Of a stretch of 24,390 bases of DNA, positions 1-24,390 are shown piece by piece; the stretch's first letter is position 1, and the number at the start of each line of letters is the position of its first letter. Source of the DNA: a virus. The stretch spans positions 1-24,390 of the IMG/VR virus record IMGVR_UViG_3300037875_000601. The stretch is one strand, 5' to 3'. Below the pieces are notes generated by a model. The model had not been told where the DNA came from. It made no database searches and saw only the letters and a program-made list of their open reading frames with translations. The translations under genes were made by a program, and so were the position numbers.

Positions 1-2494
1 TTTTAATCTTATATACAGTCTTTTCATATTCCTGAATTTGTGTAGTTAAACTACTTGTAGCGGGGTAATTGTTAGCGGCTAGAGATGCACTTGCGGCTAC
101 AGCCGTTTCTATATTTGAAAGTTTAGTTTTGAAGTTTTTCAGTCTTTTATTGACCGATCCAAAATGTACAAAATTCGCGAATTTGGTATAATCGATGTTA
201 AGGTTAACGCTTTCATTACTGGAGCTTAGTATTAAATTTTCCAGAGTTGTAGAAACCGCATCGTCCGATGTAACCAATGTATTTCTAGTAACATACGATG
301 TTTCACCTCCAGCATATGGAGAATCGATATCGTTTAAATTCGGTTGACGCAAAACTACAGCATCAATTTTATCTTCTACGAATGGAATTAAAGTAATCTG
401 ATCTTTATGTGGTGGTGCCATTTCTTTGACAACATAACATAAATCTCCAACTTCTATATCACCAGATAGAGGCTCGTACAATTTATATACAATTGAATGT
501 GGATATTGGGCTACCGATTCGGCGTCCTTTTTATAGTTGGTAGTTAAATATAAGTCGTTATTTCCGAAGTTTAATAGTGTATTCAATTCGGATTTATCGC
601 CAGTTTTATATGTTATATGCCAATCTTCAAATGGCATGGTAGTTATTGGTTCTCCACCAATATGACCAACCGCAATAGCTGCAGCATTCCAATTATCTTT
701 AATTTTAAATTGATTGGTTGTAACGATTTCTTCAATCCCACTAACAAAATCAGCGTAAACTGGTGTAATGATTTCACTATCTGTAAAAAGATATTCTACT
801 TTTACATCAGATACCAAAACCGTTCCCTCGGTATCACCATATTGACCATAAAGTGATAATCTATTTTCACCATCCAAATCAAAATCAGCGGGTATGGTTA
901 TCAAATATTCAAAATCTTGCCATATATCTTTTTCATTGCTAAAATCGCTGGCACGGTTAAAACTTATATATTTAGAAGATTCCTTTTTAACCCATTGACA
1001 TTTCGCCAATGAATAACCACTATTGCCGATTTGCTCGATAAATTCTTTTCATTCCCAAATACCATCGTCTGATAATGTCCCCGCTTGGGATGCTGGGTTT
1101 TGAATATTAAATCCTTGAGGTGGATTAATTGGATTATCACTCAATGCATTCCTCCAATACTGAATATCCCCCACCGGATCATCCTCATCTGGATCATACG
1201 GATACCAATTTCCGGTCGGTGTATAATTTCCATCTGGAGTTTTCCTATCCCACATCCAATTGCCCAGAGGTGAAGTGTCACCAACAACCAAATCGTCGGT
1301 AATCGGTGGAGTATCTTCTACGGCGACATCGTGTTTAAGTAAAGCAACGATCCCCTTATTATAAACCGATGATTTTTGTTTAAAGGTCAATTTAATTTTA
1401 TCACCATGATTAACGCCCTTGGATGCCGGCGTTTTCATATATACAAATATTGGCATTGACCTACCAGCTACTCCAAATTGTGCATTCTGATCAATGAATT
1501 TTAATGCTATCCCTCCATCAGGACCTTCACTATTGACAATTTTAGCATGATTACCAGCCCATGGGTTGGGAACTCATCCAGCGAATCCGTATGAAATAAT
1601 CTCACCGGCGGCCCCAGTTAATTGAATTGCGTCACTTTGCAAACTTTGATCTCATCCTGTTTCATCGGCCGCTGTTCAGGGAGCTCCAGTATCATTAGCT
1701 ACAATACTAGAATCATTAAAATTAAAAGCGGCAATGGATTGATGACTGATTTCTTCACCAATTTTAAATACATTTTTAACAGTTAAAGTTCCACCAATCA
1801 TGGCATCAGAAACGCCCTCGTCAGTACCGTGCTTATCAAATTGCACCAGAGTTTCCAATATATTTGGAAATGTTATCCCGCCAGACCCATCATCTTTTAG
1901 TGACAAATATTTATTTTCATCCGTATATAATCTAGAAAATTCACTCTTATAGGAATCCAAATTAATATTCAATGGGATCAATCGCAATTCCGTTTTATTG
2001 GAAGAAATAGCCTGAATGTAATATTTTAAATCTTGAATTTCCAATTCTTCCACATATTGAGTATCACCCTTTTCTCCAAGATAAATTTTACCATCATCGT
2101 CGACCCAATATGGTTGTGCCGACTGGCCAGTTATTCAACTCGGTCCAGAATATACTTCACCTTCATGATCCTGAGTATTTCTAGTTAATACATACTCATC
2201 ATTTCCAGCAACATATCTCAAAAAATTATACTCAACTTTATAATCACCAGACAAAAATCCCAAGCGCCTTAAATCGTCACCAGGTTTCAACTTGATACCA
2301 TTATTTACATCATAGTCAGAAATCTTGCTAGATTTGATGATATTGTCATCCATATCATACACATGAATTTCCACATGATCTTTATTTGGCAATGATCCAA
2401 ATATAGGGCTGTTCCACAATTGATTTTCACCTACTATGTGGCCACCACCGGCTTTGAGTACCTTAAAATCTTTTTTATTTAAACGAGTTGTCAT
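1..2494 (-). CDS. Long virion structural protein, 3' end beyond window, five in-frame TGA codons
   Basis: The reading frame starts at 2494 and is still open at the left edge, giving at least 831 residues. The standard code would break it at TGA codons 120, 273, 281, 307 and 482 (positions 2135, 1676, 1652, 1574, 1049). With TGA as Trp it is continuous. The protein is rich in Asn, Asp and Gly and predicted beta strand, with no enzyme motif that I recognise. The last visible ~120 residues contain a NIDYTKFANFVHF stretch and a basic, helical NKRLKNFKTKLSNIET stretch. From memory, similar stretches occur in long structural proteins downstream of gp6 in T4-like jumbo phages. Its ATG overlaps the upstream TAA by one base, so it belongs to the late virion operon. 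A role in the baseplate periphery or fibre attachment is inferred from position only. Confidence 0.8.
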
Positions 2495-2799
2495 TACAAT
2501 TCCCTTATTTCACGATCAATAATCAAATCACGTGTTTCACCTGTTTTTATGTTTGGTGTTCTATTTGACACTACAACTTCTTGCCACGGCCCCTGTTTCC
2601 CCAACTGAGTTTCTGGGTCTTCATATGAAATAAACATATCGGCATTATCACGAAGTTCAAATGTCCCATTTGGATTAGACCCCGAAACGGAGTATTGAAT
2701 CCTTTGTTGTTCCATCATATACTCATACTCAACATATTCAGCATTTTCCATCTCTTGGAAATATGGATTATTTTCTAATTCTTTCAATGTATATGGCAT
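2494..2799 (-). CDS. Small virion-module protein, unknown function
   Basis: 101 residues, acidic, with a Tyr/Glu/Met-rich helical N-terminal part (residues about 5-37) followed by a more beta-like C-terminal part. It ends in TAA and its single Trp is TGG. I recognise no domain. Both ends overlap their neighbours by one base (TAATG junctions), so it is translationally coupled between the DNRLRE-type virion protein and the long structural protein. This suggests a minor baseplate or tail-fibre connector or chaperone, but that is inference from position alone. Confidence 0.75.
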   Translation of the reverse strand: MPYTLKELENNPYFQEMENAEYVEYEYMMEQQRIQYSVSGSNPNGTFELRDNADMFISYEDPETQLGKQGPWQEVVVSNRTPNIKTGETRDLIIDREIREL

Positions 2800-3884
2800 T
2801 ATCTAACCACCCGAAAATTCCAGTTTTCATCGAAATATTGAACTGTTTCACCGGCCGTATTACTGCCACTAACTACCTTAAACAGTACCCGGTAATGCCT
2901 CTCAGGTTGCAAACCATCAAGCCACAAGTTGAAGTAGTTACCCGTACTATCGCAACTCACCTTTGAATAATTATCAAACGGAATTATGATGTCTTCGGTA
3001 TATGAATCCCTAATGGAATAATAAGTACTGGCACTTGGTAGTGTCTTTACTATTGTAGAATCAGTAGATGCTGTTGCCCAAGTTCTTGTTGGAAATCGTT
3101 CTTTTCCAACCAATCTAATTTTTGTCTTGCCAGTCTGTTTATATTCTGATCTAAAACTTTTGGTATAAACATTCATGTCGTCCAAATTTGCACCTGTCAA
3201 TGCAGATAATGATCCAGTACTTCAGCTGGAATCATCCCAAGCCACTTCCAATTTTGGAGGATAAACCGAATTGGTATCTCTTGAGAAAAAATTGAAATTG
3301 CCCAATGAAGTCGTGCTGGCTTCATCAGAAACACTTCTTTTCAGCATAAGTCCGGCATTGGGAATAGTACCGTCTAATCATTTATTGACAATATCAGTAA
3401 CATCCATTCTCAAGTCAGTAGTTTCCAAACTAAATGATTGTGAACCTACATAGCCACTACCACTATACCATGTTCCACCACTTGTAAGTGATCCACTTAC
3501 CCACGTACTGCCCCCAGTAAGACCATCCGTATATGCTCAACTTGAACCTTCCGTAGTAACGGGATCATCATATAATGTGCCCTGACCCATAGACCAACTT
3601 TTGCTCACAGGATAGGTGTATAATGATTGCTCCACCTGCAATTCCGTCGGGTTGGCGTCATATAAATTCAAATAAAATTTTCTACTTGAAGGAATAGTAC
3701 CGTTTACTATTGAACTGGAAATTGTGGTTAAATCAAATTGAATTATTGATCTTGAAAGTTTGATAACCGAACCATCTGGGTTCATATCCTTACGAACTTC
3801 CAGCACTTCATCAAGTCCAGTATTCATACTAGCTGATGCTTCATATAGTGTATTGTCTTTAGTTGCGAATGTGAAAAAATGCAT
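2799..3884 (-). CDS. Virion protein with a DNRLRE-like domain, three in-frame TGA codons
   Basis: 361 residues, read through TGA codons at 116, 169 and 221 (3537, 3378, 3222). Under the standard code it would be split into pieces with no proper start. Residues about 1-195 carry features of the DNRLRE (disaggregatase-related) beta-sandwich family: IIQFDLTTI near 48-55, a SWSMGQGT block near 96-103, and a DVTDIVNKWLDG block at 161-172 whose Trp is the TGA codon. The C-terminal half is beta-rich with no family I can name. DNRLRE domains are found in surface and carbohydrate-related proteins, so a receptor- or glycan-facing role at the baseplate is plausible. It ends in TAA and overlaps the neighbouring genes by one base on each side. 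The domain call is from motif memory and not a profile search. Confidence 0.8.
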
Positions 3885-5869
3885 TAAATACTCCCGATTA
3901 CTTTCCCTTGTATATCCGTGTTGGCGAACTTGAGCTCAAAAATGGAAGGGTCAAGGGATGGATATACCACACCATTTTTAGTAGCACTGTCAATGTCATA
4001 TATATTGCCAGAGTAATTGCTAGCCTTATCCCATTTATTAGTAATAACAACGGGTAGTCCCATTGGATTTCCATCGGCTGGAGGAACTATTGATCCCACT
4101 CCCTCTACCAATGATAATAAATAAGTAATATCCGATACGATAATAGGCTGATTCATCTGCCATTTATCTACATCAAAATATCCCTTTACCGCCTCAATAC
4201 ATCTCAACAATACCTCATTTTTATTGTAATTCCGTTTAGTAATAATTGAAAATTTGACTCCAACATTTATTACCCAAGCGGTTTTAATATTAATGGCATC
4301 TGTAATCATTCTATATTGTCCCATATACGTTTTCAAATTTTGCTTAACGGCTTCATTCAGGGGAACTAAATATTTATTATTATCAAATCCCAAAGTGTAC
4401 AAATTCAGCGCCATTGGATTTGGAATTCTATTTGTCATTTTTCTAGCCAAACTTTGTACTGGATTCCCAACGTCATCTTCCGTAATAAGTGAATCCATGT
4501 CTAATGCAGCGTTATTAGCTCCAGTTAATTGATCATCTTGGACAATATAAACTTTAGCAATATTACCATATTTTGCTGGCAATGAATATGCTCTAACAAT
4601 ATAATCTTCCTTTGTTACAGCCCTCTGCTGAGCTTGAAAATACGCCAATGCGTTTTGTCTTATTTCATCAATGGATTCGGCACCCCTACCACCAGAAGCT
4701 GGTTCGGGATTTATAGCAGAAACTGAATCCTTGGCATCTTGTACCAACGCGGACGATAAATTTTCATCGTCTATTTCATAAGTTACCGCGGCAATACTAT
4801 TTATTTCATTTGAAACAACATTGTCTCCAATTCCACCACCATATGCATATTTAATAGTCAATGTAGTATTGGAAGGGGATAATCCGTATGTCCGAGTTGA
4901 TAAGAAATTTGATGGGTCGAATGCCGTATCCAAATAACTTGGACTACCTGGTAATGTAGAACCCACATTCTGCGGATTTGGTATAATTTCTTCATCTGGA
5001 TTATCCGATATTCCGGCTCCAAATTTGATCTCTGTTCTACTGTCCGATCTAATGAATGTAGTAAATCTCCGAGGAGTCTTTAATAATTTTAATAGATATG
5101 GTGCATCGTTATTGTACTGTGATAATTCAGGATCATTAGCGGCTTCATTTTCCATATCTTCAAATACTGTATCTTGGGCTAAAAATGGAACTTCTGTTCA
5201 AGAATTTCCATCACTGTCCGTAACACTAATAATTTCTGTTATATTCTCATTGGCCAAAGCGATTTTTGAATATTTTTCAGCCGTTGTAAATGTGAAGTAT
5301 TCAGTAGTTATATTTCCACTATAAACAGACGTGGATTTCTTCAATAAATATTTTGAAGGTAAATTGGTAGCTCCATCAGTTTCCAATACCGTTATTGTCA
5401 TTGGATCATAAGAACTTGAAAATTTAAAATTAACATCACCACCAGCCCTAAAGGTTATCCCATTACTGGATTTCATTTCAAGTCCAGTCAAATTCAATGT
5501 ATATCTCATATCGGGTGCCACCGTTGTAATATTACCAATAGCGGGAACCGTTTGAAATACATTAACATTGGTCGACGCTGGTGTAACAATTTTAGGTTTG
5601 TAACCCATAGATTGTACAGCTTCATATACAATACGTTTTTCTTCAGCATACGCCAATAATGATTCTTTAAAATTGGAGTCAATATAATATGACAACACAT
5701 CCCCAACATATGATATCAATTCAATGAACATCATTCCCGGATCACTTTCATTAAAATCGTTGTAAGTGTTGGGGAAGTATATTTTAGCAAATTCAATTAG
5801 ATCATTTCTGAATGAACTAAAGTCTTTTGAAAGGTACTTCACATCTTTTGATACATTCTTTTTAGCCAT
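3884..5869 (-). CDS. gp6: Baseplate wedge protein, T4 gp6 / gpJ-like
   Basis: 661 residues, joined across one TGA at codon 224 (5198-5200). The N-terminal pattern (KDVKYLSKDFSSFRNDLIEFAKIYFP, then NDFNESDPGMMFIELISYVGDVLSYYID, residues about 9-65) is typical of the gp6/gpJ family, which builds the baseplate wedge and iris in contractile-tail phages. A later segment resembling QQRAVTKEDYIVRAYSLPAKYGNIAKVYIV also fits gpJ-like proteins. The ATG shares one base with the TAA of the gp25-like gene, the usual 25-6 order in T4-like phages. It ends in TAA. The only uncertainty is the residue at codon 224, where Trp is assumed. Confidence 0.92.
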
Positions 5870-6288
5870 TAATACTCTCCTGTTTCGAACGTAAGCGCGA
5901 TTTGTTCTTCCGTTTCGGGGTTTAATGTTATTGAAAAAGTTAAAACTACTCCAACTTGATTTCCACGCCGTTCGTCAAATTTAACATCTACATTCTGTAT
6001 ATTCACATATGGAAGTCAAACGCTCGTAACATTCAATATTTCTTCTTCAATTGCCAATGACATATCAGATTCAACCATAGGTTCGAATAACAATCTATGT
6101 AAATTCGATCCAAAATTTGGTTGCATTACTCTTTCACCACGTATGGTGAGAAGAAGATTCTTCAAATTTGTTGACGCCTGCTGTAAATTGGTTTTGGTTT
6201 GCTTAAAAGCACTTTGGGTGCCCCTTCCTAATGGAAAAGACAATCCAATTCAAGTATCAGGATTTAAGTCGTTTTCTCTTGCTCCCAT
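5869..6288 (-). CDS. gp25: Baseplate wedge protein, T4 gp25 family, two in-frame TGA codons
   Basis: 139 residues from an ATG at 6288 to a TAA that overlaps the next start. Two TGA codons are read through: codon 13 (6250-6252) and codon 91 (6016-6018). Family features are clear: SFPLGRGTQSAF (17-28), then LLLTIRGERVMQPNFGSNL (45-63), the gp25/GPW signature. Codon 91 lies in a VTSVWLPYVNI context; from memory, related phage proteins have Trp before LPY, which supports TGA = Trp. The protein forms part of the inner wedge that joins the hub and starts sheath contraction. Using the standard code, the first ATG would be at 6243 and both ends would be lost. Confidence 0.92.
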
Positions 6289-6310
6289 TTTAGTTTCCTA
6301 TTTTTAGTAT

Positions 6311-7110: not shown

Positions 7111-7563
7111 CTATGATCATGGAAGCGGGACTGGTGTCACCGGAGTTCCTGATAAATAAATTCCTGTTCTAAATCAAACATCAATGATTGTCGCCATACT
7201 GTTGGCAACTACTGATGCGGGTGCTCCACTCATTCCAATTGGAATTATTGGTGCAAATAATAATGGTGTAACTGGAGGAACATTTGGACCTCCCGTTCCT
7301 GGGATTGACGACGCTACTACAGCGAATTGTAAAAATGCCGCTTGTAATAATGGCAATGCTCCAGCTGGTGGAAACTTGGGACCTATCGTTGCAACAAATG
7401 CAGATTTGGCCCCAGCTAGATTACCCCCCGCGATTGGAAATAATGCCTGTTGAAAATATCCACCTAGGGCATCGGCTCAAGCTTGGGGCGTAACGTCTTT
7501 CCCCGCTTCCATTGTCATCAAATCTGTTAAATTCTGTGCTAATATTGGTTGTAATAATGGCAT
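7111..7563 (-). CDS. Small hydrophobic tail-module protein, three in-frame TGA codons
   Basis: 150 residues from an ATG at 7563, two bases after the TAA of the spike gene, to a TAG at 7111. TGA occurs at codons 29, 130 and 149 (7477, 7174, 7117). The central region is rich in Ala, Pro, Gly and hydrophobic residues (for example LPLLQAAFLQFAVVASSIPG and PPVTPLLFAPIIPIGMSG), and the C-terminus is SGTPVTPVPLPWS. It has no signal-peptide-like start. Its place next to the spike suggests a tail-tip or spike-associated part. I do not recognise the family. A plus-strand ORF over the same bases is a shadow. Confidence 0.78.
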
Positions 7564-7565
7564 TA

Positions 7566-8678
7566 TTAAAGTGTCTTATTCTGTGGACTCAACATTTGAG
7601 CCAATCTAGTTTTTATACCCGCAAACTGTGCCGCATTAACTGGAGGACCACTTGGGCCAACACCAGTTGGAACGGTTGTTTGTGTAATAGCATCTATTAA
7701 TTCTTCTAGCAATCCCAACAACGCGTCTCCCAATACAATAGGTTCTGTGGCGTCATCTGATCCCAATTTTATTTCTGGTGATTCAACTACCATCTTAGTA
7801 GTGGCACCAATGACAACATTATTATTGGACAATATTCCAATATCTCCACCGTTCTTAGTATTAAATATCAACTTATCAGAATTTAGTATAATTTGTTTAC
7901 CTTCATTTAGAGCTGGGATTAACGCACTTGGATACCCCTGAATAATCGTACTTTCTTCATCGGATAACATTCATATTGAAGATGCATCGGCGTCTAAATT
8001 TTCATCTATTGGTTTATGCAATACAGACTCGGTATCACTTTTTACGGAGGCCAGTCCAGCATGGTCGGCATCTAATAAATGACCAACTGAAATTTTAATA
8101 TTCGGTGATAGATTCGTTTCTAAACCATTTTTCCCAAAACGGATTCCCTGACCAAATCTGCCATTGAATAGTATGTCACCCTCATACGGTCACAATTGTC
8201 TAATATCCGTATTTACGGTAAAAGTTTCACCAATTGAAAAATCTTCAATATCTTTGAAATTCGAGCTTATTCCGGGGATGGAATTGGCATTAACCGATGC
8301 GTTTATATTTAATTTTTGAGTATAAAATCTAGAATAGAGATAATCTGCAACAATGACATATTCACCCTTTAATGGATATTCCTTGATGTTGGTGTCGAGT
8401 GGATATATTCATTGTAATTCTTCAATATCCTTGCCACGTTCATCGTGAATAAGCCGTGCCTTTATAGAACCCATTAATGAATAATTTTTAGAACCATCTG
8501 GAAAATCGGGAATATCTGCCTCATCTAACAAAACCTCTAATACTTCAGCGACTTCCAATTCATAGAATTCACTGGAAAATTCCCTAGCTTTTTGTAATTT
8601 ATAAACATCATTCAATGTAGTCATGCCCCCGCCGAATGCTGGGAGTGTGAATACTTTATTTGTTTTTCTATGTGCCAT
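7566..8678 (-). CDS. Baseplate hub spike, gp5/VgrG-like C-terminal region, three in-frame TGA codons
   Basis: 370 residues, joined across TGA codons 90, 163 and 236 (8409, 8190, 7971). Residues about 90-110 read WIYPLDTNIKEYPLKGEYVIV, a pattern like the OB-fold start of gp5-type spikes. The C-terminal region has regular beta-prism-like repeats (KQIILNSDKLIFNTKNGGDIGI, then VVIGATTKMVVESPEIKLGSDDATEPIVLGDALL) and ends with an amphipathic ELIDAITQTTVPTGVGPSG tail. This fits the central membrane-piercing spike of a contractile tail. There is no lysozyme domain, unlike T4 gp5. The start overlaps the end of the preceding gene by 11 bases; the stop is TAA. Confidence 0.83.
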
Positions 8679-11204: not shown

Positions 11205-11229
11205 AACCTATTCCTTCTTTTTGTTTTAG

Positions 11230-11585: not shown

Positions 11586-11588
11586 GGG

Positions 11589-13646: not shown

Positions 13647-13647
13647 T

Positions 13648-14274: not shown

Positions 14275-14275
14275 A

Positions 14276-14788: not shown

Positions 14789-15599
14789 TCTGATATTCCC
14801 TTATGTATGTTGGGGGTAATGTCTTTTTGTGATTGGATGAAATTATCCGAGACATTATTAGGTTTTGCTTTTCATATGAAATGGGACAATCGGCTTTCCA
14901 TTCACTAGATGGAACATCCAAAGATTTTTTATACCACCGTAAAAATGCGTCAAGTTCAACATATGTTAAACCAATCTCATCTTCATCAGTCTGACCTTCC
15001 CATAATCCGGCAGAAGGTGGTTTATTGATAATTGACTTGGGAACTCCTAATTCTCGAGCCAATTCGTATACTTCATCTTTGTAATAGTCACCGAGTGGTT
15101 CAAAATCAACCGCTCCGTCACCCCATTTTGTGAAGTAACCAATAGCGTGTTCTGTTTTGTTGCCAGTTCCAATGACTAGATAATCCAATTCGGATGCTAC
15201 ACCGTAAAGAACTGTCATTCTGATTCTAGCTTGAATATTAGCTAGTGTCATCTGGTTCATTTTACCATTACCATTACTATGCATGGCCGATGGTCTTATA
15301 GCAGATTGAAAATCCATATACATGCCTGATGCATGAATAGTTTGATGATCAACTCCCCTACTTTCATATGCGTAATGCCACATATCAGTCGAATTTCCAT
15401 ATTCTTCTTCAGTATTGGCCAAAATTGGGATACTTATCGCGTGGACATTTTCTTTTCCGAGTGCTCTAATGGCTAGCTCGAAAGAAACGGCGGAATCAAT
15501 CCCGCCGCTCAGTCCAATAACAACCCCAGTTTTGCCAGCACCATGAACATAATCCTTAATCCATTTTTCTAAATGTCTTACTTCTTTTTTAGTATCCAT
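14781..15599 (-). CDS. nadE: NAD+ synthetase, ammonia-dependent
   Basis: 272 residues, the usual length for the single-domain ammonia-dependent enzyme; there is no glutaminase domain. The PP-loop is at 31-36 (GLSGGIDSAVS), followed by ISIPILANTEEEYGNS, TLANIQARIRMTVLY, VIGTGNKTEHAIGYFTKWGDGAVDFEPLGD and KPPSAGLWEGQTDEDEIG, all typical of NadE. It adenylates and amidates nicotinate adenine dinucleotide to NAD+. A repeated promoter lies 22 bases upstream of the ATG at 15599, and GAGGGG gives the ribosome site. It heads the transcript with the Nudix and PncA genes. All Trp codons are TGG; the stop is TAA. Confidence 0.95.
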   Translation of the reverse strand: MDTKKEVRHLEKWIKDYVHGAGKTGVVIGLSGGIDSAVSFELAIRALGKENVHAISIPILANTEEEYGNSTDMWHYAYESRGVDHQTIHASGMYMDFQSAIRPSAMHSNGNGKMNQMTLANIQARIRMTVLYGVASELDYLVIGTGNKTEHAIGYFTKWGDGAVDFEPLGDYYKDEVYELARELGVPKSIINKPPSAGLWEGQTDEDEIGLTYVELDAFLRWYKKSLDVPSSEWKADCPISYEKQNLIMSRIISSNHKKTLPPTYIREYQND

Positions 15600-15620
15600 G
15601 TTACCCCTCTTTCATACCTG

Positions 15621-15649
15621 AAGATACAAGATTTAATTGTAAAAGTCAA
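15621..15649 (-). promoter_or_regulatory. Repeated early-type promoter, copy ahead of nadE
   Basis: Minus strand TTGACT, 17-base spacer, TATCTT. The -10 region and its downstream extension (TATCTTCAGGTATGA) are identical to two other copies in this window. The start point would lie in GGTATGA. TTG-N20-TATCTTCA resembles the TTG...TANNTTTG promoters of Bacteroidota. Confidence 0.8.
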
Positions 15650-15658
15650 GCGTTATTT

Positions 15659-17293
<1,635 letters not shown>

Positions 17294-17299
17294 TTATTT

Positions 17300-18457
17300 T
17301 TATTGTAATCCTAACGTGAATTTGCAATTTTCTATTGCTTCTTGTGAATCACTTGTGTTTTTTCCTACATTGTCTGACAATTTAACCGCGTGAATTTTTC
17401 TTGAATTCCTATCGTAAATGCCACTTAATTTTATAACCATGTTCAATGGTATTACTCCAGTATCGTTGGTAAGGTTAGTACCAATTCCAAATGAAGTTTT
17501 GATTTTATTTCTAAAATGTTCCGTTATTTCTACGGCTTTTGGTACATTCAATCCATCTGAAAATACTATCGTTTTTGACATTGGATCGATTCCCAATGAT
17601 TTGTAATGCTCGATAATCTTCTCACCAAACTCAATTGGGTCTCCACTATCGTGCCGAACTCCATCGAATAATTTAGCGAAATACATATCAAAATCCTGTA
17701 AAAATACGTCTGTTGTATATGTATCTGTTAATGCGATACCCAAGCTTCCTCGGTATGTATCACTCCATTTTTCTAAAGATTTGTATGTAGCTGACTGATA
17801 TCCGTATTTTGCTCCGTGAAACATAAACCATTCGTGGGCGTGTGTTCCAATTGGAGTAATATCGAATTGTTCAGCTAAATGTACATTACTTGTACCAACC
17901 AAAACGTCATGTAAATTCTCAATAACCAATCGATGAATTTCATAAGAACGCCGGCGCCGTGTACCAAAATCAGCCACCTTGATTTCCGAACCTTGAATCA
18001 TATTCCGTTTTGTGAGAATGCTATTCATTGTTTCGGGCATGTTTGGTAGTGATGATCTTAGATATACTTCAGAAATAATAGCCATTAAAGGTACTTCCCA
18101 AAGGATAGTTCTATACCAAGGTCCCATTATTGACAGTTCCAATTCGTTATTTTCATTGGAAGTCATCGTAACTTCACTTGGATCAAATCTATATCCACTT
18201 AAAAAATCAAGATACATTCCATCCAAGTATGGAGCCTTATCTTCTAAGAATTTCCGTTCCTTTTCAGTTAATGACAATGTTGCCATAGCATTAATTTCAC
18301 GCTGAATCTCTTCAACGTGTTCGTGGGTGAATATGTTATTCTCTGGATTTCGATTTTTAAATCGGTATTCTACTATTGTATTTGGATAGTGCTTAACAAC
18401 CGCGTTCTGCATCGTGAATTTGTACATATCATCATCTAAAATAGATTTTATAATCAT
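17300..18457 (-). CDS. pncB: Nicotinate phosphoribosyltransferase
   Basis: 385 residues, ending in TAA 18 bases before groL. N-terminal DDDMYKFTMQNAV (8-20) and VEYRFKNR are typical of PncB. The core has VADFGTRRRRSYEIH (161-175), GTSNVHLAEQFDITPIGTHAHEWFM (188-212, with H206 as the likely phosphorylated His), and the PRPP/phosphate side FDGVRHDSGDPIEF and IVFSDGL. It converts nicotinate and PRPP to nicotinate mononucleotide, the step after PncA. The motifs fit nicotinate PRTase and not NAMPT. AAAGGACAAGG gives the ribosome site. All four or more Trp codons are TGG. Confidence 0.94.
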   Translation of the reverse strand: MIIKSILDDDMYKFTMQNAVVKHYPNTIVEYRFKNRNPENNIFTHEHVEEIQREINAMATLSLTEKERKFLEDKAPYLDGMYLDFLSGYRFDPSEVTMTSNENNELELSIMGPWYRTILWEVPLMAIISEVYLRSSLPNMPETMNSILTKRNMIQGSEIKVADFGTRRRRSYEIHRLVIENLHDVLVGTSNVHLAEQFDITPIGTHAHEWFMFHGAKYGYQSATYKSLEKWSDTYRGSLGIALTDTYTTDVFLQDFDMYFAKLFDGVRHDSGDPIEFGEKIIEHYKSLGIDPMSKTIVFSDGLNVPKAVEITEHFRNKIKTSFGIGTNLTNDTGVIPLNMVIKLSGIYDRNSRKIHAVKLSDNVGKNTSDSQEAIENCKFTLGLQ

Positions 18458-18470
18458 AACCTTGTCCTTT

Positions 18471-19052
18471 TTAATCTTCTATAAATAGTTTCCAATTTCC
18501 TGAAAGTATCAAACTTTCTGCCTTTTTCCATTTTAATTCTCGTTTTTCTTCATCCCTTGTTATTGTCACCTTTTCATTTCTGCCAAACTTTCGCTCGGAC
18601 TTAATTGGTTCCAACTTGACTTCCCGATCAAACATAGTAATTCCATTCAAATGGTCCAATTCGTGTTGAGCGGCGACACATTCTAACATATCAATTTCAT
18701 TTCTACTCAACGATGTAAAACATACACCTGCAGGATAATTATCAGCTGATACTTCTATTGTACTAAATCTTTTTGTTTTTGCTGATTTTCCGGGGAATGA
18801 TAGGCATCCCTCATCGTAATAGATTTCCCCAGACTGATTCGTAATTTTTGGATTGATGAGATAAATAGGTTCTTTTACATTGATAACCACGACATTCTTT
18901 TCAATTCCAATTTGGTTGGCGGCGATTGCCACCCCAGCTTCAGACGTGGATAAAACATCAAATAACTGTGCGGCAATCAGTTCACCTTCTTCAAGTGAGA
19001 CATCCACACATTTATTTCTTAGAAGTTTTTCGTCTGTAATAATTTTATTCAT
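18471..19052 (-). CDS. def: Peptide deformylase
   Basis: 193 residues from an ATG at 19052 that overlaps the end of the upstream gene by 8 bases. A longer ORF start at 19124 is rejected because it lies within the upstream gene. The three deformylase motifs are present: GVAIAANQ (40-47), EGCLS (81-85) and the metal-binding QHELDH (129-134). It removes the formyl group from the N-terminal Met of nascent proteins. The C-terminal ~35 residues are a basic and helical extension (KRELKWKKAESLILSG) past the usual end. Phage deformylases are known; this one sits upstream of pncB in the same transcript. Confidence 0.95.
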   Translation of the reverse strand: MNKIITDEKLLRNKCVDVSLEEGELIAAQLFDVLSTSEAGVAIAANQIGIEKNVVVINVKEPIYLINPKITNQSGEIYYDEGCLSFPGKSAKTKRFSTIEVSADNYPAGVCFTSLSRNEIDMLECVAAQHELDHLNGITMFDREVKLEPIKSERKFGRNEKVTITRDEEKRELKWKKAESLILSGNWKLFIED

Positions 19053-19299
19053 CAATGAATCCCATAATTTTCTGATATTCCAGTACTTTACCATAATAAT
19101 AAATAACCATTTCTCCCAAAACATTTTCCTTGGTTGTAATGATTTTCATATAATCAGCGTGAATATCGTCGGGCACAAAGTCCAAATTGTCCATTACTCC
19201 TGGCAATGTACGGTATGCGGAAAGTACATTGGAATGCATTTTCACATACCATTCATACTTTTCAAAATCCGTTAAATCGGTTTGATCCCAATCAGTCAT
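19045..19299 (-). CDS. Small protein of unknown function
   Basis: 84 residues. I place the start at 19299 (MTDWDQTDLTDFEKYEW), one base after the upstream TAA. The longer start at 19320 would overlap that gene. It is acidic, with aromatic-rich helices (EKYEWYVKMHSNVLSAYRTL and MVIYYYGKVLEYQKI). It ends in TAA that overlaps the deformylase start by 8 bases. Trp codons are TGG. No domain is recognised. Confidence 0.75.
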   Translation of the reverse strand: MTDWDQTDLTDFEKYEWYVKMHSNVLSAYRTLPGVMDNLDFVPDDIHADYMKIITTKENVLGEMVIYYYGKVLEYQKIMGFIDE

Positions 19300-19300
19300 T

Positions 19301-20002
19301 TTATTTCCAAGTCCTTCCATTGGGTCCCACTAATACGATGCCCTTAATATTGTCCTTACCAACTTCTTTTCGGAATTTGGTTTGAGCCTTTTTGGCTTCG
19401 GCAACGGTATCGAATTTTCCCCATGCTCGGTTGTTGTCACTCGCGACAAAGTATTTTTTATTTTTTAATTTATACGGAATTTTAAGTTCACCAGATTTGG
19501 TTTGAACTTTTACCGTTTTCTTGACGGGCTTTTTCTCAGTCTTAGGACGACCCGGTTTTGCTGTACCGGCGGCCTTTTTCAAAGCAGCTTTTTTATTTTC
19601 ATGCCTCTTAATCAATTTGAGACGACGACGTTCGGCCTTTTCCTTAGCGGCCAATTTCTGATCCGCTTTAATTTTCTTAACATCTGATACTGGTAATGTA
19701 CCCTTTAATTTGGTCTGTTCCTCGCCCCTATGAAATACGTTTTTGTCCTTATCAACAAATACTTTCATAAACTGCCATCCCCGCGGGCGACCACTGGCTT
19801 TCTTAGTTTTTACTTCAGTAAATGGAACCCTGCCCATTGTATGTTTATAACAAATTGCACCAACGCTATGTACATCAATTTTTACTTCTTCTGTACATCC
19901 TTCTTCTTTACAAACTACCCATTTGAATGCTACTGATCTTGAATCAAAATCCTTACCAGATGCTTTAGCTTTAGTTCTTTTTGCCAATTTCTTACGTGCC
20001 AT
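19301..20002 (-). CDS. Basic zinc-cluster / AT-hook-like protein, unknown function
   Basis: 233 residues, very Lys-rich. The N-terminal part has Cys and His positions (C31, C36, H45, C51, H54) that could hold a zinc ion. SGRPRGWQFMKVFVDKDKNVFHRGEE (70-95) follows, then a long Lys/Ala helix (about 110-150), an AT-hook-like PGRPKTEKKP segment, and a compact C-terminal domain ending LVGPNGRTWK. GRP cores flanked by basic residues suggest binding to AT-rich DNA, a possible packaging or transcription role, but this is inference. From memory, similar basic proteins occur in large phages. It ends in TAA and is followed one base later by the next gene. Trp codons are TGG. Confidence 0.72.
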   Translation of the reverse strand: MARKKLAKRTKAKASGKDFDSRSVAFKWVVCKEEGCTEEVKIDVHSVGAICYKHTMGRVPFTEVKTKKASGRPRGWQFMKVFVDKDKNVFHRGEEQTKLKGTLPVSDVKKIKADQKLAAKEKAERRRLKLIKRHENKKAALKKAAGTAKPGRPKTEKKPVKKTVKVQTKSGELKIPYKLKNKKYFVASDNNRAWGKFDTVAEAKKAQTKFRKEVGKDNIKGIVLVGPNGRTWK

Positions 20003-20008
20003 TAAATA

Positions 20009-20374
20009 TTACCCTTCATCGCAGATTGCGATTAATTCATCGGGAGTTCTAACCGACCCATTGTCGGCTTCCCATTTTTTCTCTTCATTTTTATTAGCGG
20101 CTTCCGCCAGTTGACGGGTGTATTTTAGAATAATACGCCTCGCGATATTTATCTGTTTTCTACTCAAGAAATTATTCTTAAGATAGAACTTCGAAAAAGA
20201 AGTCATAATCTCAGCGTGTGCTCCAGAGTATCCAACCCCATTCGCTTCGATTGTGTATTCGGAACTTTGTTCATCGGCGGTCTGTAAATCATAAATGACT
20301 AACATTCCACGAACAACTGCGTCATCTCTAACGATTAATAAGTTCCTGATATCTTCTTTTTTCCATATTTTCAT
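20009..20374 (-). CDS. Conserved phage-type small protein, unknown function
   Basis: 121 residues. The start is at 20374 (MKIWKKEDI), preceded by AAAAGGAAAA. An upstream in-frame ATG at 20395 falls at or before the predicted transcription start and is rejected. The core (VVRGMLVIYDLQTADEQSSEYT, then ANGVGYSGAHAEIMTSFSKFY, LSRKQINIARRIILKYTRQLA) is a pattern I recall from many phage and plasmid proteins, but I do not know a proven role. It is the first gene of a transcript starting at the second repeated promoter, so it is likely expressed early. It ends in TAA; Trp codons are TGG. Confidence 0.8.
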   Translation of the reverse strand: MKIWKKEDIRNLLIVRDDAVVRGMLVIYDLQTADEQSSEYTIEANGVGYSGAHAEIMTSFSKFYLKNNFLSRKQINIARRIILKYTRQLAEAANKNEEKKWEADNGSVRTPDELIAICDEG

Positions 20375-20400
20375 TGTGTTTTCCTTTTCTCTCATACCTG

Positions 20401-20429
20401 AAGATACAAGAAAAAAATGACAAAGTCAA
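20401..20429 (-). promoter_or_regulatory. Repeated early-type promoter, copy ahead of the 121-residue gene
   Basis: TTGACT (20424-20429), 17-base spacer, TATCTT (20401-20406) and the same CAGGTATGA extension as the other two copies. It lies 22 bases past the terminator of the ATP-grasp gene and drives a run of genes through at least groL. Confidence 0.82.
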
Positions 20430-20451
20430 GCGTTATTTTGCAATATAGCAA

Positions 20452-20477
20452 GAAAAATGCCTAATAAAATTAGGCAT
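20452..20477 (-). terminator. Intrinsic terminator overlapping the ATP-grasp stop codon
   Basis: Minus strand hairpin ATGCCTAA-TTTTA-TTAGGCAT followed by TTTTT. The first arm contains the TAA stop (20470-20472), so coding sequence and terminator overlap. It separates the ATP-grasp transcript from the next promoter. Confidence 0.85.
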
Positions 20478-21348
20478 CTCTCAGTTTGTTTACTAATTGT
20501 TTGTAGAAAACCAATGGATTAGCACTTGAGGCCAACCCAGATACTTCACCAGCACCAGTTTCTACAATGTGGAAATTAAAATCATTGTCAATTCCAATAT
20601 CAATAGTTAGAAATGGAACATTCAATTCCTTTGCAATTCTGTCCAAATGGATATACATGGAACCATCACCAATATACTTAGGATTTTCACATCCATTGGC
20701 GTTAAACGATGCCATTTTTCCATTGACAAAAAATGCTCGGAATTCCAATGAGTTTCCATTTTCATCTTTTTTGAAATCGATAAATTCCTTAGCGACAATT
20801 CCCTCATTAAATCCATACATTTTACGACCCCTGATCATATTATGAACAGTCATATTTGCGGCCTGATAGTTTGTAGGATCGGTTACAACCAATGCGTTGT
20901 CAATACCCTTAGCTGACTTTACATAATCTTTAACGATATATGGTTTGCCGTCCAATTGAGTTTCAACATATTCTGGATTGAAATATTTAGCTGGAAGTGT
21001 CACCGTTTTTGGTGAGTATTTCCGCAATGTTTTTGATGCCATATATGCATATGGAAAGTAATGTACTTTGGTATAGTCATTGTGATTTTGGAAAAAGGCA
21101 TAACCTTTATCTTCCAATTCGCCCTGAAACCATTTCATTGTAGCGTCATCCATCATCCAGCCACGATAAAGTAATGTACCTTCACCTTCTGGAATTTTTT
21201 GTAACCACCCGTATCCACCAGCGTCCATATCTGCAAAATCGAACAACATGATATTTTGACCCAATAATTTTAGAGCCTCATATTCTTCTTCAAATCCGAA
21301 ATCTGGTTTGTTTTTTTCAAGTGGGTTTTGTGGTAATAAAAAAATCAT
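20470..21348 (-). CDS. ATP-grasp ligase, R2K-like
   Basis: 292 residues. The start is at 21348 (MIFLLPQNP), with AAGGAAAAGAT as the ribosome site. The in-frame ATG at 21363 lies at the predicted transcription start and is rejected. ATP-grasp features: a Lys in PYIVKDYVKS (K140), LEFRAFFVNGK (201-211) and a metal-binding end TIDIGIDNDFNFHIVETGAGEVSGL (248-272). This end is like the R2K clade of ATP-grasp enzymes, predicted amide or peptide ligases reported in phages and mobile elements. The acceptor substrate is unknown. It has its own promoter and terminator, so it is a single-gene transcript. All Trp codons are TGG. Confidence 0.85.
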   Translation of the reverse strand: MIFLLPQNPLEKNKPDFGFEEEYEALKLLGQNIMLFDFADMDAGGYGWLQKIPEGEGTLLYRGWMMDDATMKWFQGELEDKGYAFFQNHNDYTKVHYFPYAYMASKTLRKYSPKTVTLPAKYFNPEYVETQLDGKPYIVKDYVKSAKGIDNALVVTDPTNYQAANMTVHNMIRGRKMYGFNEGIVAKEFIDFKKDENGNSLEFRAFFVNGKMASFNANGCENPKYIGDGSMYIHLDRIAKELNVPFLTIDIGIDNDFNFHIVETGAGEVSGLASSANPLVFYKQLVNKLRDA

Positions 21349-21368
21349 ATCTTTTCCTTTCATACCTG

Positions 21369-21397: not shown

Positions 21398-21403
21398 GCG
21401 GTA

Positions 21404-21781
21404 TTATGCTTTTTCTAAAAATAATTTCCGATAACATTTTTCTCAATCCGCTTCGGCAACGGCGTCCGCTTCGATTTCATATGGGCAATTTGGAGCGTTA
21501 TTATACATATTGATATACCGAGACAATCAAACTGGCGATTGATGGTAATGTTTGAATTCGTGTATCATAACAAATATAGTTCTCTGTATATCCATTCCTT
21601 CCGTTTTTGGATAGATAAATACCTCGTTATCCTCAAATACGAATTCTCCATTGCTGGGGTGATCTTTAGTGTTGTCTATAATCAATTCGGGTTCAAATCC
21701 CTGATATTTACTGACACCATATTCTGTGAGGCATCAGTTGAATATGTTCTTAATAACCTTATTTGTAACTTTTGTAGCCAT
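21404..21781 (-). CDS. Small zinc metalloprotease-like (HExxH) protein, three in-frame TGA codons
   Basis: 125 residues, hidden from standard-code gene calling by TGA at codons 16, 85 and 113 (21734, 21527, 21443). With TGA as Trp it is complete and ends in TAA. It has MIHEFKHYHQ (72-81), an HExxH zinc-binding helix, and a downstream EIEADAVAEADWEK (102-115) with an acidic third-ligand candidate, the arrangement seen in small M78/ImmA-like and other phage metallopeptidases. The ATG at 21781 is two bases after the upstream TAA. The substrate is unknown; proteolytic activity is inferred from the motif. Confidence 0.75.
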
Positions 21782-21782
21782 A

Positions 21783-22265
21783 TTAACCTCTAAAGCTCTT
21801 TCCTAATTCTTCAATATAATCTAAAGCATCTTCCTTATTTGGAAATACAATATCAGATTCCATAAGTACAAACGCGTGTCTATGGATATTGCCTTCTTCC
21901 ATCGCTACCACAACGTGTTTGTTGTGCAAATAGGCGGCAGTGATTTCACACACCGACCCAATTGATACTATTTTAGAACCTGTCAAATCCACAAATACAA
22001 TATCCGATTGTTCCACCATCCAATGATCACGACCTACAATTGCCCTATCCGTGGTGATTGGTGATAAATATTTCATCTTCTGACCTTCGGAAGCTTCACA
22101 TTTCATTTCCGGTCTAGTGTATTTGGCTTTGCCAAATAATGGGGACAATATGGTATAGTGTTTTTTTAACCGTTTGATAGTGCCGGCCCACTTTTTTTCT
22201 ACATCTTCAAATGTCCCACCTGTAATGGGACCAGCGATGTATAATTTCATTTTATTTTTAAACAT
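21783..22265 (-). CDS. Nucleoside 2-deoxyribosyltransferase-like protein (DUF4406-like)
   Basis: 160 residues from an ATG directly after the TAA of the GIY-YIG gene. An alternative start is the Met at residue 6 (MKLYIAGPITGG), the usual family start. KLYIAGPITGGTFEDVEKKW at the N-terminus and SDIVFVDLTGSKIVSIGSVCEITAA further on are typical of 2-deoxyribosyltransferase-fold proteins; the Glu in SVCEITAA is the likely nucleophile. Members swap bases on deoxynucleosides or hydrolyse nucleotide N-glycosidic bonds. It may act in nucleotide salvage or NAD-related chemistry. It ends in TAA; Trp codons are TGG. Confidence 0.78.
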   Translation of the reverse strand: MFKNKMKLYIAGPITGGTFEDVEKKWAGTIKRLKKHYTILSPLFGKAKYTRPEMKCEASEGQKMKYLSPITTDRAIVGRDHWMVEQSDIVFVDLTGSKIVSIGSVCEITAAYLHNKHVVVAMEEGNIHRHAFVLMESDIVFPNKEDALDYIEELGKSFRG

Positions 22266-22961
22266 TTATTTTCTTCTACTTTCTCACATCTTTTTATCTG
22301 CACATGGCTTTGAACAAGTCTTTTTGTATCTGCCATTTTTGTATCATCGTGGGTATGTATAAATTTCATATTCCTGTCCACATACAGGGCATTTCAACTG
22401 GAAATATTCTTGGATGGTTTTACCTTTGTTCCAAGTATTAGTCAATTCCCCACTTGCAAATTTTTTCTTTTTTGTAATTTTTTGTTTCTCTGATCCTGCT
22501 TTGATACGGGGATCGTCGGATGTTAATCCTTTGTTCCACGGTTCCTGACCCATGTGGGAATCACTATTCTTTTTCCTAGTTTCGGCCGTTTGTTTATGAC
22601 CAGTTAAAGCGATAGAAACATTCCGATTGCGTTCAGCTGAATGCCATGGTTGTCCGTTGTTATGCCTCGCCTTAATTATTTTCTTGGAAGCTTCTGGTGT
22701 GCATCCACCTTCACCACCAGGATACAAATTATATCCAATATTGACAGCATCGGTCATTTTAATTCAATATATTTCTCTGATATTCAATTGTGTTTCATCC
22801 TCACAATGCTCTATAACTTCTTTAACAAAATTTTCCTTGCCGTATTTTTTTATTGCTTTTTTCAATATGGACCCCGAACCAATATAGTCGGGGTCATCAT
22901 ATTTAGATTTCCCTATGTAGAATTTGCCGTTTAAGGTGTTTGTAGTTTTGTATATAATCAT
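22266..22961 (-). CDS. GIY-YIG homing endonuclease with NUMOD3 and zinc ribbon, three in-frame TGA codons
   Basis: 231 residues, read across TGA at codons 66, 206 and 226 (22764, 22344, 22284). The N-terminal GIY-YIG domain is clear: IIYKTTNTLNGKFYIGKSK, DPDYIGSGSILKKAIKKYGKENF (about 2-50). It continues into GYNLYPGGEGG and NUMOD3-like helices (TPEASKKIIKAR, SIALTGHKQTAETRKKNSDSHMG, WNKGLTSDDPR). The C-terminus adds CPVCGQEYE and CSKPC, a likely zinc ribbon. It starts with a good GAAGGAG site and ends in TAA directly before the next ATG. It is probably an active freestanding homing nuclease; the target is unknown. Confidence 0.88.
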
Positions 22962-23024
22962 TGTCTTTCTCCTTCAATAATAAGTATCATCAAAAAAAGA
23001 AAAACACGCTATTACTTTAGCAGT

Positions 23025-23501
23025 CTATTTACTGAAACGATCAGCAATCTCCATTGCAGCCCAGGAGTCTGGTTTTCCAACCGCTGTGAAACCAGCACCT
23101 GTAATGTAACCAAGACACTCGTTCATAACCGCGTTACTAGCGTGAATTGGATTGCTACTTACATCAGCGTGAATAGCTTCAACGCAATATCCAGCGTCTT
23201 CCAGAATTGGATTCAACCACATTGCTGTTTCTACGGACATGTGAGTTTCTTGAAACAATTTCTGCCTGATAGAAATCTTGTAGCCCAATTTTTCAACGGT
23301 CTCTTTGTAATAACCACGACCACCCTGTCCATCGAACAACACGATAACTGCAGTAATGTACTTAATGCTACCGTTCTTAACTTGACTGTCACTTCCGATA
23401 TACCAAGTCAATTTATCAGTTGGAGCACTTGCAATGTCCTTTAGAATTGTCTGTTCCAAGTCATCGACTTTTTTGCGTGTGAATCTTTGCCATTTTGTCA
23501 T
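23025..23501 (-). CDS. RNase H-fold protein, YkuK/DUF458-like
   Basis: 158 residues, ending in TAG, with AAAGGG before the ATG. TWYIGSDSQVKNGSIKYITAVIVLFDGQGGRGYYKETVEK (32-71) and the later EAIHADVSSNPIHASNAVMNECLGYITGAGF resemble the YkuK/DUF458 group, which is predicted to have a ribonuclease H-like fold. Acidic residues such as D38 and D114 could be catalytic. Biochemical function in the family is not settled as far as I know. It lies after a repeat-rich spacer and tRNA-Ser. Trp codons are TGG. Confidence 0.82.
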   Translation of the reverse strand: MTKWQRFTRKKVDDLEQTILKDIASAPTDKLTWYIGSDSQVKNGSIKYITAVIVLFDGQGGRGYYKETVEKLGYKISIRQKLFQETHMSVETAMWLNPILEDAGYCVEAIHADVSSNPIHASNAVMNECLGYITGAGFTAVGKPDSWAAMEIADRFSK

Positions 23502-23521
23502 TTTATAACCCTTTCTTTAGT

Positions 23522-23575
23522 TTATAGTTGGGTATAATAATTTTTACCCAACCATTATAGTTGGGTATAATAATT
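23522..23575. repeat. Direct repeat pair enclosing an inverted arm (three alternating hairpin arms)
   Basis: A 21-base direct repeat (TTATAGTTGGGTATAATAATT) occurs at 23522-23542 and 23555-23575, 33 bases apart. Between them TACCCAAC (45-52) is complementary to GTTGGGTA inside each copy (27-34 and 60-67). One arm can therefore pair with either neighbour. On the minus strand this follows the tRNA-Ser 3' end. There is no proper T tract, so a simple intrinsic terminator is not well supported; processing or attenuation is possible. Confidence 0.8.
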
Positions 23576-23576
23576 G

Positions 23577-23661
23577 AGGAAGATACTGGAATCGAACCAG
23601 TGTACCCTTACGGACAGCCTTAGGTTAGCAACCTAGCACATTACCACTCTGTCAATCTTCC
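23577..23661 (-). tRNA. tRNA-Ser (anticodon GCU)
   Basis: 85-base class II tRNA. GGAAGAT pairs with ATCTTCC to form the acceptor stem. The T arm ACTGG-TTCGATT-CCAGT is perfect, and the anticodon loop TTGCTAA gives GCU, reading AGC and AGU. The D arm is weak (three pairs) and the long variable arm fits Ser. CCA is not encoded. It is not the UCA-anticodon tRNA that TGA decoding would need. Confidence 0.9.
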
Positions 23662-23701
23662 TTGTTAATAAGTATCTGTTAATATGCGTAAATACAATTA
23701 T

Positions 23702-24364
23702 TTATGCATCAATTGCATGTAATTCTGGTATAAACACCTTTGTAATTTGAACATTTTCAGCGTATGCTAAATCCGTTCCATCTGTTGTCAAAATATCAAT
23801 TGCCATTCGGTGACGGAAATTCATAGTATCTTCAATCTGATAAATGCCATCCCAAATGCCCGCACCTGTTACTTCCACATAATCACCCATTTCGAATATT
23901 CCCTTACCATATGCGGGGTCATCCTCTGGCAATCGGTGACTTAATTTTGTATGCATGTCCCAACTAATTGCAATCCATCTATGTTGTGACGCATTTGGTA
24001 TATCAATTTTTGCACCACTTGCGGTAATATCTGGGTCGGCATCACATTGGGCTTCGACTGGGTAATAATTTGTTACCCTTACCGCCAATGATGTTGGTTT
24101 TTCCAATTCGGTTACTCTCGCTTCCAAATCCACAATGTGCTTTAAAGCATCCGTTAAATCTATATATTGTTCATACGCTACCATTTGTAGTGTATCTATT
24201 TCTCCTTGCAAATGTACTTCCATTGGAAATACTGATATTGCATTGTATGATAATACAACCATTAGGCTGAATATTAATGTTACCGACATTACTATTAAAA
24301 GTAATTTCTTAACGCTCATAATGAGCATTGTCGGTATCTTAATTTCTGGGTCTTCGGTTTTCAT
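23702..24364 (-). CDS. Membrane-anchored 3D-domain protein (double-psi beta-barrel)
   Basis: 220 residues from an ATG at 24364 with AAGGAG before it, ending in TAA. It has a cytoplasmic N-terminus, one membrane helix (about 19-43), a coiled-coil-like region (about 55-90) and a C-terminal domain (about 95-215). That domain contains TNYYPVEAQCDADPDITASG, RWIAISWDM, GDYVEVTGAGIWDGIYQIEDTM and MAIDILTT, typical of the 3D family (the three conserved Asp lie in the last two blocks). 3D domains are found in cell-wall hydrolases of the lytic transglycosylase type. The anchor would place it on the outer face of the inner membrane. A role in lysis or wall remodelling is inferred. Trp codons are TGG. 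Confidence 0.85.
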   Translation of the reverse strand: MKTEDPEIKIPTMLIMSVKKLLLIVMSVTLIFSLMVVLSYNAISVFPMEVHLQGEIDTLQMVAYEQYIDLTDALKHIVDLEARVTELEKPTSLAVRVTNYYPVEAQCDADPDITASGAKIDIPNASQHRWIAISWDMHTKLSHRLPEDDPAYGKGIFEMGDYVEVTGAGIWDGIYQIEDTMNFRHRMAIDILTTDGTDLAYAENVQITKVFIPELHAIDA

Positions 24365-24390
24365 TTTAACTCCTTGTTTTTATTGTAGAA

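What the first reader, a model, noticed from the sequence alone, without database searches (positions are those of the whole stretch)
1..24390. TGA is read as tryptophan across the window
Twenty-nine in-frame TGA codons fall in 11 genes, and each resolves a broken gene into one continuous frame with sensible domains. None of the 31 visible stop codons is TGA (25 TAA, 6 TAG), and the tmRNA tag also stops at TAA. Several TGAs fall at family-conserved Trp positions (HNH RWQDEVAW, gp25 WLPY, DNRLRE NKWLDG), so Trp fits and Gly does not. Code-4 phages are known, but this is an unusually clear case that standard gene callers would shred.
Basis: partly seen in the sequence, partly recalled or inferred. 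Interest (0 to 1): 0.85.

Follow-up and report, generated by a model that had tools for sequence, protein, structure and literature searches.

The report
Phage reads TGA as tryptophan, selectively
This piece of an uncultured phage reads the usual stop signal TGA as the amino acid tryptophan in its tail genes and a few others, while its metabolic genes avoid TGA, which suggests that the phage changes the meaning of the codon late in infection; phages of this general kind are already known.

Summary
I count 29 in-frame TGA in 11 of 31 genes; the 30 visible stops are 24 TAA and 6 TAG. Tryptophan is the meaning: at the 13 TGA sites alignable to 78 non-recoded relatives, 369 of 571 residues are Trp and none is Gly; Trp background 1.0%. 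TGA and TGG swap between two related species.

"Across the window" is not right. The other 20 genes have 0 TGA and 50 TGG. The split is conserved: genes TGA-free in the window's species carry TGA in species B in 1 of 15 cases, TGA-bearing ones in 10 of 10 (p=3e-6). Tail genes and homing endonucleases carry TGA; enzymes and replication genes do not.

The lineage is nested among phages that lack in-frame TGA and use TGA as a stop. Recovered tRNA arrays (31 and 46 tRNAs) hold only tRNA-Trp(CCA), no UCA tRNA, with about a third of the genome recovered.

Most likely: a phage of a standard-code host that switches UGA from stop to Trp for late genes. TGA=Trp phages with structural-gene bias are published, so this is a new member of a known kind; the decoder is open.

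The parts
2..2494 (-). long tail-fibre-like gene, open at the window edge; 5 TGA (2137, 1678, 1654, 1576, 1051), 12 TGG
   Evidence: homologue in species B 56%; 'fibre' is by position and size, no family search was made for it
2799..3884 (-). DNRLRE-type tail protein; 3 TGA (3539, 3380, 3224), 7 TGG
3884..5869 (-). baseplate wedge (gp6-like); 1 TGA (5200), 3 TGG
   Evidence: phrog_6; Trp the commonest residue over 78 relatives at that site
5869..6288 (-). baseplate wedge gp25; 2 TGA (6252, 6018), 0 TGG
   Evidence: PF04965, phrog_261; second site Trp commonest, first site Phe commonest, over 76 relatives
7111..7563 (-). unknown gene; 3 TGA (7479, 7176, 7119), 0 TGG
   Evidence: one TGA is TGG in two other contigs of the same species
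7566..8678 (-). unknown gene in the baseplate block; 3 TGA (8411, 8192, 7973), 0 TGG
   Evidence: no family match
10076..10417 (-). small gene, hydrophobic N-terminus by eye; 1 TGA (10378), conserved as TGA in species B
   Evidence: no PHROGs match
11589..12062 (-). HNH homing endonuclease just upstream of the tmRNA; 4 TGA (11936, 11918, 11798, 11681), 0 TGG
   Evidence: PF01844, phrog_655; no homologue in the recovered species B sequence
12105..12293 (-). unknown small gene; 1 TGA (12236), 0 TGG
21404..21781 (-). small gene with an HEFKH motif (by eye); 3 TGA (21736, 21529, 21445), 0 TGG; all three TGA in species B too
   Evidence: no family match
22266..22961 (-). GIY-YIG homing endonuclease; 3 TGA (22766, 22346, 22286), 3 TGG
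   Evidence: phrog_314; NUMOD3 (the Pfam GIY-YIG match is below its cut-off); TGA/TGG exchange with species B
10419..11204 (-). TGA-free: HD-type phosphohydrolase (0 TGA, 3 TGG)
12552..18457 (-). TGA-free metabolic block: IMPDH/GMPR, isochorismatase-like, NUDIX, NAD synthase, GroEL, NAPRTase (0 TGA, 17 TGG)
   Evidence: GroEL; 0 TGA in species B as well
18471..21363 (-). TGA-free: peptide deformylase, three other genes, ATP-grasp (0 TGA, 17 TGG); the deformylase has 5 TGA in species B
21783..22265 (-). TGA-free: nucleoside deoxyribosyltransferase-like (0 TGA, 2 TGG)
   Evidence: below Pfam cut-off
23025..24364 (-). TGA-free: RNase H-like protein and an unknown gene (0 TGA, 7 TGG)
11229..11585 (-). 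tmRNA, tag GTNYAYPVAA ended by TAA
23576..23661 (-). tRNA-Ser(GCT), the last tRNA of a long array that lies upstream of the window

Best explanation
The window is part of a large T4-type (Immutovirus-like) phage in which UGA means tryptophan in one set of genes and is avoided in another. Shown: the Trp meaning, the two gene sets, and their conservation between two species. Inferred: the phage infects a bacterium in which UGA is a stop; early in infection UGA still terminates, so enzymes, the chaperonin and replication genes keep only TGG; later a phage-supplied tRNA reads UGA as Trp against the host release factor, so tail genes and homing endonucleases can drift freely between TGG and TGA, and late proteins are not completed too soon. 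The tRNA is most likely a Trp-inserting UCA tRNA in the unsampled part of the genome; the phage's own Trp(CCA) tRNA is the alternative.
For: Trp at 369 of 571 aligned residues at TGA sites, Gly at 0. All 25 window TGA that can be aligned to species B meet a Trp codon there (the four of HNH have no B match; 28 of 31 if upstream ORFs are added). Gene-level heterogeneity of TGA versus TGG: chi-square 63 against a permuted mean of 28, 0 of 20000 permutations as high. Cross-species prediction of the gene set: 1 of 15 against 10 of 10 genes, p=3.4e-6. Four tail genes 11 TGA/22 TGG, eleven enzymes (GroEL included) 0/35, p=1e-4. Primase 0/4 in both species and SbcC-like 0/7 and 0/6. A-ending bias of Lys, Glu, Gln and Leu codons is alike in both gene sets, so base composition does not explain it. 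Relatives 54-61% identical in gp6 have no in-frame TGA (78 of 78 loci) and use TGA as a stop (42 of 467 gene ends).
Against: No UCA tRNA and no TrpRS-type or release-factor domain in the 12 recovered records of lineages A, B and C. Host unknown. Which genes are early or late is inferred from function; the T4-type late promoter word TATAAATA is absent from the coding strand of the window. The deformylase changed sets between the species (5 TGA in B).
Confidence: 0.62

Rival explanations
1. The host itself uses code 4 and supplies tRNA-Trp(UCA); the phage is adapting and TGA has not yet spread to all genes.
For: No UCA tRNA found in the phage. A distant lineage (G024/G025) uses TGA at most Trp positions, also in primase and SbcC-like genes, as expected in a code-4 host.
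Against: Third positions of Lys, Glu and Gln codons have exchanged at 24-34% of A/B columns in both gene sets, yet Trp columns stayed TGG in every TGA-free gene (67 of 67; labels chosen by absence of TGA, so this count is circular); the non-circular cross-species test agrees. Recency does not readily explain a split by function.
Confidence: 0.2
2. UGA is read by the phage's own tRNA-Trp(CCA) through a C:A mismatch at the third position, with no UCA tRNA at all.
For: The only Trp tRNA in a 31- and a 46-tRNA array is CCA. The species B copy is odd: 83 nt, extra arm, best Rfam match tRNA-Sec at 30.6 bits, below its cut-off of 47, and U at position 43 by my numbering. PMC13092985 (abstract, sections 19 and 20, passages) reports that tRNA-Trp(CCA) with a shortened anticodon stem raises UGA readthrough in E. 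coli and cites hinge mutations that do so.
Against: The species A copy looks ordinary (75 nt, 5-bp anticodon stem); its U11-A24 pair is common (recalled). The species B fold is uncertain (MFE frequency 0.05, centroid different). About two thirds of the genome is unseen.
Confidence: 0.15
3. The TGA-free genes are recent imports from standard-code organisms and have not had time to gain TGA.
For: Many are cellular-type enzymes.
Against: Their orthologues in species B are 47-96% identical and TGA-free apart from the deformylase, and the set includes phage genes such as HD, primase and SbcC-like.
Confidence: 0.05
4. TGA is Gly or selenocysteine, or the frames are broken genes or assembly errors.
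For: Under table 11 the frames break.
Against: 0 Gly in 571 residues and Trp enriched about 60-fold; same codons in other contigs; TGA/TGG exchange between species.
Confidence: 0.01

Closest known systems
TGA=Trp (table 4) phages, e.g. crAss-like phage Lera (PMC12386605, passages read) and those surveyed in PMC11210395 (passages read)
   Same: TGA is Trp; only part of the genes carry it (41 ORFs in Lera, mostly structural among those with a predicted function); a close relative is not recoded; a UCA suppressor tRNA is often not found (11 of 73 table-4 genomes had one in PMC11210395).
   Different: Not crAss-like; T4-type gene set; no UCA tRNA seen although a large tRNA array is present (Lera has one); TGA-free set tested across two species.
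Late code switch in TAG=Gln phages (PMC9523058, passages read; Borges 2022 not held, known only through citing passages and recall)
   Same: Recoded stops in structural genes, standard-compatible early genes.
   Different: Other codon and amino acid; proteomic evidence there, none here.
Flavobacterium phage vB_FspM_immuto_2-6A (Immutovirus) and Microcystis phage Mel-JY01
   Same: Immutovirus has phosphohydrolase, gp25, gp6, a long gene and primase in the same order; gp6 40.8% (immuto) and 46.5% (Mel-JY01) identical.
   Different: Their gp6 aligns over 98-99% in one piece under table 11; no tRNA was found in the 100 kb of Immutovirus scanned.
tRNA-Trp(CCA) that reads UGA (Blastocrithidia, Ca. 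Zinderia; PMC13092985, abstract, two sections and passages)
   Same: Only a CCA Trp tRNA seen alongside in-frame UGA.
   Different: Those have a 4-bp anticodon stem; the phage copies have five pairs, with a top G.U pair in species B.

Membership tests
TGA=Trp (table 4) recoded phages | many in-frame TGA that restore full-length genes | tested here: met
   29 in 11 genes
TGA=Trp (table 4) recoded phages | TGA columns are Trp in homologues | tested here: met
   369 of 571, 0 Gly; Trp commonest at 9 of 13 alignable sites
TGA=Trp (table 4) recoded phages | TGA not used as a stop | tested here: met
   0 of 30 in the window, weak alone (p 0.06); one small gene upstream (G011:9489-9809) has TGA five codons before TAG in both species, ambiguous
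late-switch recoded phages | recoded codon concentrated in structural genes | tested here: met
   homing endonucleases and some unknown genes carry it too
late-switch recoded phages | phage-encoded suppressor tRNA with UCA anticodon | tested here: inconclusive
   none in the 12 recovered records of A, B and C; genomes incomplete
late-switch recoded phages | phage TrpRS or RF1 (reported for some members, PMC10746230 passages) | tested here: inconclusive
   PF00579 and PF00472 absent from all 12 recovered records of A, B and C; genomes incomplete
late-switch recoded phages | standard-code host | not testable with these tools
   host unknown; related gp6 genes in two MAGs may be misbinned
genus Immutovirus | close genome-wide similarity | tested here: not met
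   no megablast match of the window in the phage collection; gp6 40.8%
code 25 (TGA=Gly) phages | Gly at TGA columns | tested here: not met
   0 of 571

The most novel reading that the evidence does not exclude
The phage switches the code without any UCA suppressor: it replaces the host tRNA pool with its own near-complete set, in which a modified tRNA-Trp(CCA) (Sec-like in species B) reads both UGG and UGA, so that one tRNA array both sustains late translation and turns UGA into Trp for late genes only.
Probability: 0.12. Interest if true: 0.8.

Novelty: new member of a known kind. Interest (0 to 1): 0.5.

Why it matters
It adds a T4-type phage lineage to the TGA=Trp phages and gives a clean comparative test of the idea that recoding separates early from late genes: in two species the same genes, with one exception, exclude TGA. 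Because the lineage is nested among phages that use TGA as a stop, and a distant lineage is recoded almost throughout, it offers stages of code change to compare. Reading with the standard code breaks these tail genes, so such phages risk being under-annotated.

Tried and rejected
Gly, Sec, broken genes and assembly error were rejected. TGA stops inside TGA-free genes were sought; I saw one ambiguous case. A degenerate tRNA at G011:3109-3194 was checked as a hidden suppressor and reads as Leu(UAA)-like; the B 'tRNA-???' has a 6-base anticodon loop and no clear UCA. A T4 late promoter word gave nothing useful. Host search through gp6 in genome contigs gave two MAG contigs, uninformative. Walking further along the genome gave no new contig of the clade from one end and none beyond G019 from the other. 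A terminase pattern with TGA at the first Trp found a different, more fully recoded lineage, with TGA at the second Trp nothing. The Gp23 search matched nowhere, controls included, and says nothing. In a wider count with mechanically called ORFs as queries, 24 of the loci outside the clade showed 1-2 in-frame TGA; inspected, all 31 of these TGA lie in the last 6 codons of primase alignments or in the first 26 codons of over-long upstream extensions, so none is a true in-frame TGA. ORFs from greedy calling include spurious frames, and the gene-end count used some of them as queries; for the window I rely on the curated genes.
Full report
Observation. The window is the whole of a 24,390-base virus record from IMG/VR. 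The genes I call lie on the minus strand. With TGA read as Trp, 31 genes cover it; 11 of them hold 29 TGA, all 31 together hold 78 TGG, and the 30 visible stops are 24 TAA and 6 TAG (gene starts are mine, one gene was counted from three codons upstream of its ATG, without effect on the Trp counts).

Meaning of TGA. A search with the gp6-like protein gave the best 80 of 192 relatives. Two of the 80, L001 and L041, have in-frame TGA; the other 78 (gp6 54-61% identical) have none in 952-3247 aligned codons each. In those 78, 13 of the 29 TGA sites can be aligned: Trp makes up 369 of 571 residues and Gly 0, against 70.8% Trp at the window's TGG sites and 1.0% overall. At 4 of the 13 sites another residue is commonest (Arg, Lys, Tyr, Phe).

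Two species. A search with the protein at 23025-23501 found contigs that extend the window: species A (G011, G015; G002 is L001; later G019) and species B (G012, G013, G014; G001 is L041; later G020). DNA matches over 300 bases between A and B are mostly 66-80% identical, at most 91%. For the window genes plus 15 upstream ORFs, aligned Trp columns A/B are TGG/TGG 94, TGA/TGA 13, TGA/TGG 15, TGG/TGA 10; 3 of 31 A TGA, all in one poorly matched upstream ORF, and 6 of 29 B TGA meet a non-Trp codon. Of the window's own TGA, 25 of 25 alignable ones meet Trp.

Two gene sets. TGA is not spread evenly. Eleven genes have 29 TGA and 28 TGG; twenty have 0 and 50; two of the twenty have no Trp at all. Lys, Glu, Gln and Leu codons end in A about as often in both sets (0.74/0.83/0.67/0.52 and 0.70/0.83/0.62/0.52). 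The unevenness exceeds all 20000 permutations. Labelled by species A alone, TGA-free genes carry TGA in B in 1 of 15 cases (the deformylase) and TGA-bearing genes in 10 of 10 (p=3.4e-6; the other six of 31 genes had no B match or no Trp there; by codons 5 of 48 against 22 of 56, p=8e-4). By function, four tail genes (gp6 and gp25 by family match, fibre and DNRLRE by position and label) have 11 TGA and 22 TGG, eleven enzymes 0 and 35, two homing endonucleases 7 and 3. Beyond the window the primase (0/4 in both) and SbcC-like gene (0/7, 0/6) follow the enzymes, and a 2113-codon open frame in A has 5 TGA and 23 TGG. In TGA-bearing genes the Trp codons exchange A and G at the third base in 23 of 63 columns, like Lys, Glu and Gln (24-33%); in TGA-free genes 0 of 67, though that set was chosen by lacking TGA.

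History. In a quick-method tree of the SbcC-like protein (62 rows) the three recoded A/B rows form one clade (SH-aLRT 100) nested among other contigs without true in-frame TGA in their aligned genes. Close relatives end genes with TGA in 42 of 467 cases, 34 of 105 loci having at least one. A pattern for a terminase motif with TGA at its first Trp found two contigs (G024, G025), 99.7% identical over 23.8 kb, of a far lineage whose genes mostly use TGA for Trp, replication genes included. It sits outside on a very long branch, so recoding probably arose at least twice; the long branch makes this unsure.

Decoder. Upstream of the window lie long tRNA arrays, 31 tRNAs in G011 (cut by the contig end) and 46 in G013. 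Each has one tRNA-Trp, anticodon CCA; no UCA tRNA was found by ARAGORN with or without introns or by a motif scan, and the one Rfam match that ARAGORN missed in the part looked at reads as Leu. The A copy is ordinary; the B copy has an extra arm and matches the tRNA-Sec model best, below its cut-off, with an uncertain fold. No TrpRS-type or release-factor domain was found in the 12 records of A, B and C. I recovered roughly 56 kb of A and 64 kb of B; the nearest cultured relatives have 160-190 kb, so this absence is not proof.

Mechanism. The exclusion of TGA from enzymes, chaperonin and replication genes in two species is what one expects if UGA is a stop when those genes are translated and Trp when tail genes are. 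This late-switch idea is published for TAG phages with proteomic support (PMC9523058, passages) and for TGA phages as an inference (PMC10746230 and PMC12386605, passages; Borges 2022 not held, cited through them). A code-4 host is the main rival; it does not readily explain the split by function.

Known or new. Searches for this in print (listings only, capped at 10-25 titles) showed no paper on an Immutovirus-like TGA-recoded phage; that covers only the open-licence library and those terms. The kind is known; I found no description of this lineage.

Noticed in passing
L168:2630-3102 and L171:8364-8834: GOLLD RNA (RF02032, 190 and 192 bits) inside the tRNA arrays of both species, with a tRNA-Arg gene lying inside it.
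   Followed up: partly
L171:7865-7947: Species B tRNA-Trp(CCA) with a long variable arm, scoring best with the tRNA-Sec model.
   Followed up: partly
G024/G025 (L269-L272): Separate phage lineage with TGA at most Trp positions in most genes and no tRNA genes in the recovered sequence.
   Followed up: partly
11229-12062: An HNH homing endonuclease gene ends 3 bases before the tmRNA gene starts; not found in the recovered species B sequence.
   Followed up: no
13648-18457: NAD salvage and synthesis genes (isochorismatase-like, NUDIX, NAD synthase, NAPRTase) together with GroEL.
   Followed up: no
18471-19124: Peptide deformylase: 0 TGA/6 TGG here but 5 TGA/2 TGG at aligned columns in species B, the only gene of the 15 tested to change set that way.
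   Followed up: no
G011:9489-9809 (L168): Small gene with TGA five codons before TAG, the same in both species; could be a true TGA stop with a backup or a C-terminal Trp.
   Followed up: partly
L185, L208, L199, L200, L251, L256, L260: In these non-recoded relatives a TGA ends or nearly ends the primase alignment, as a true stop would; the primase of A and B ends in TAA.
   Followed up: partly
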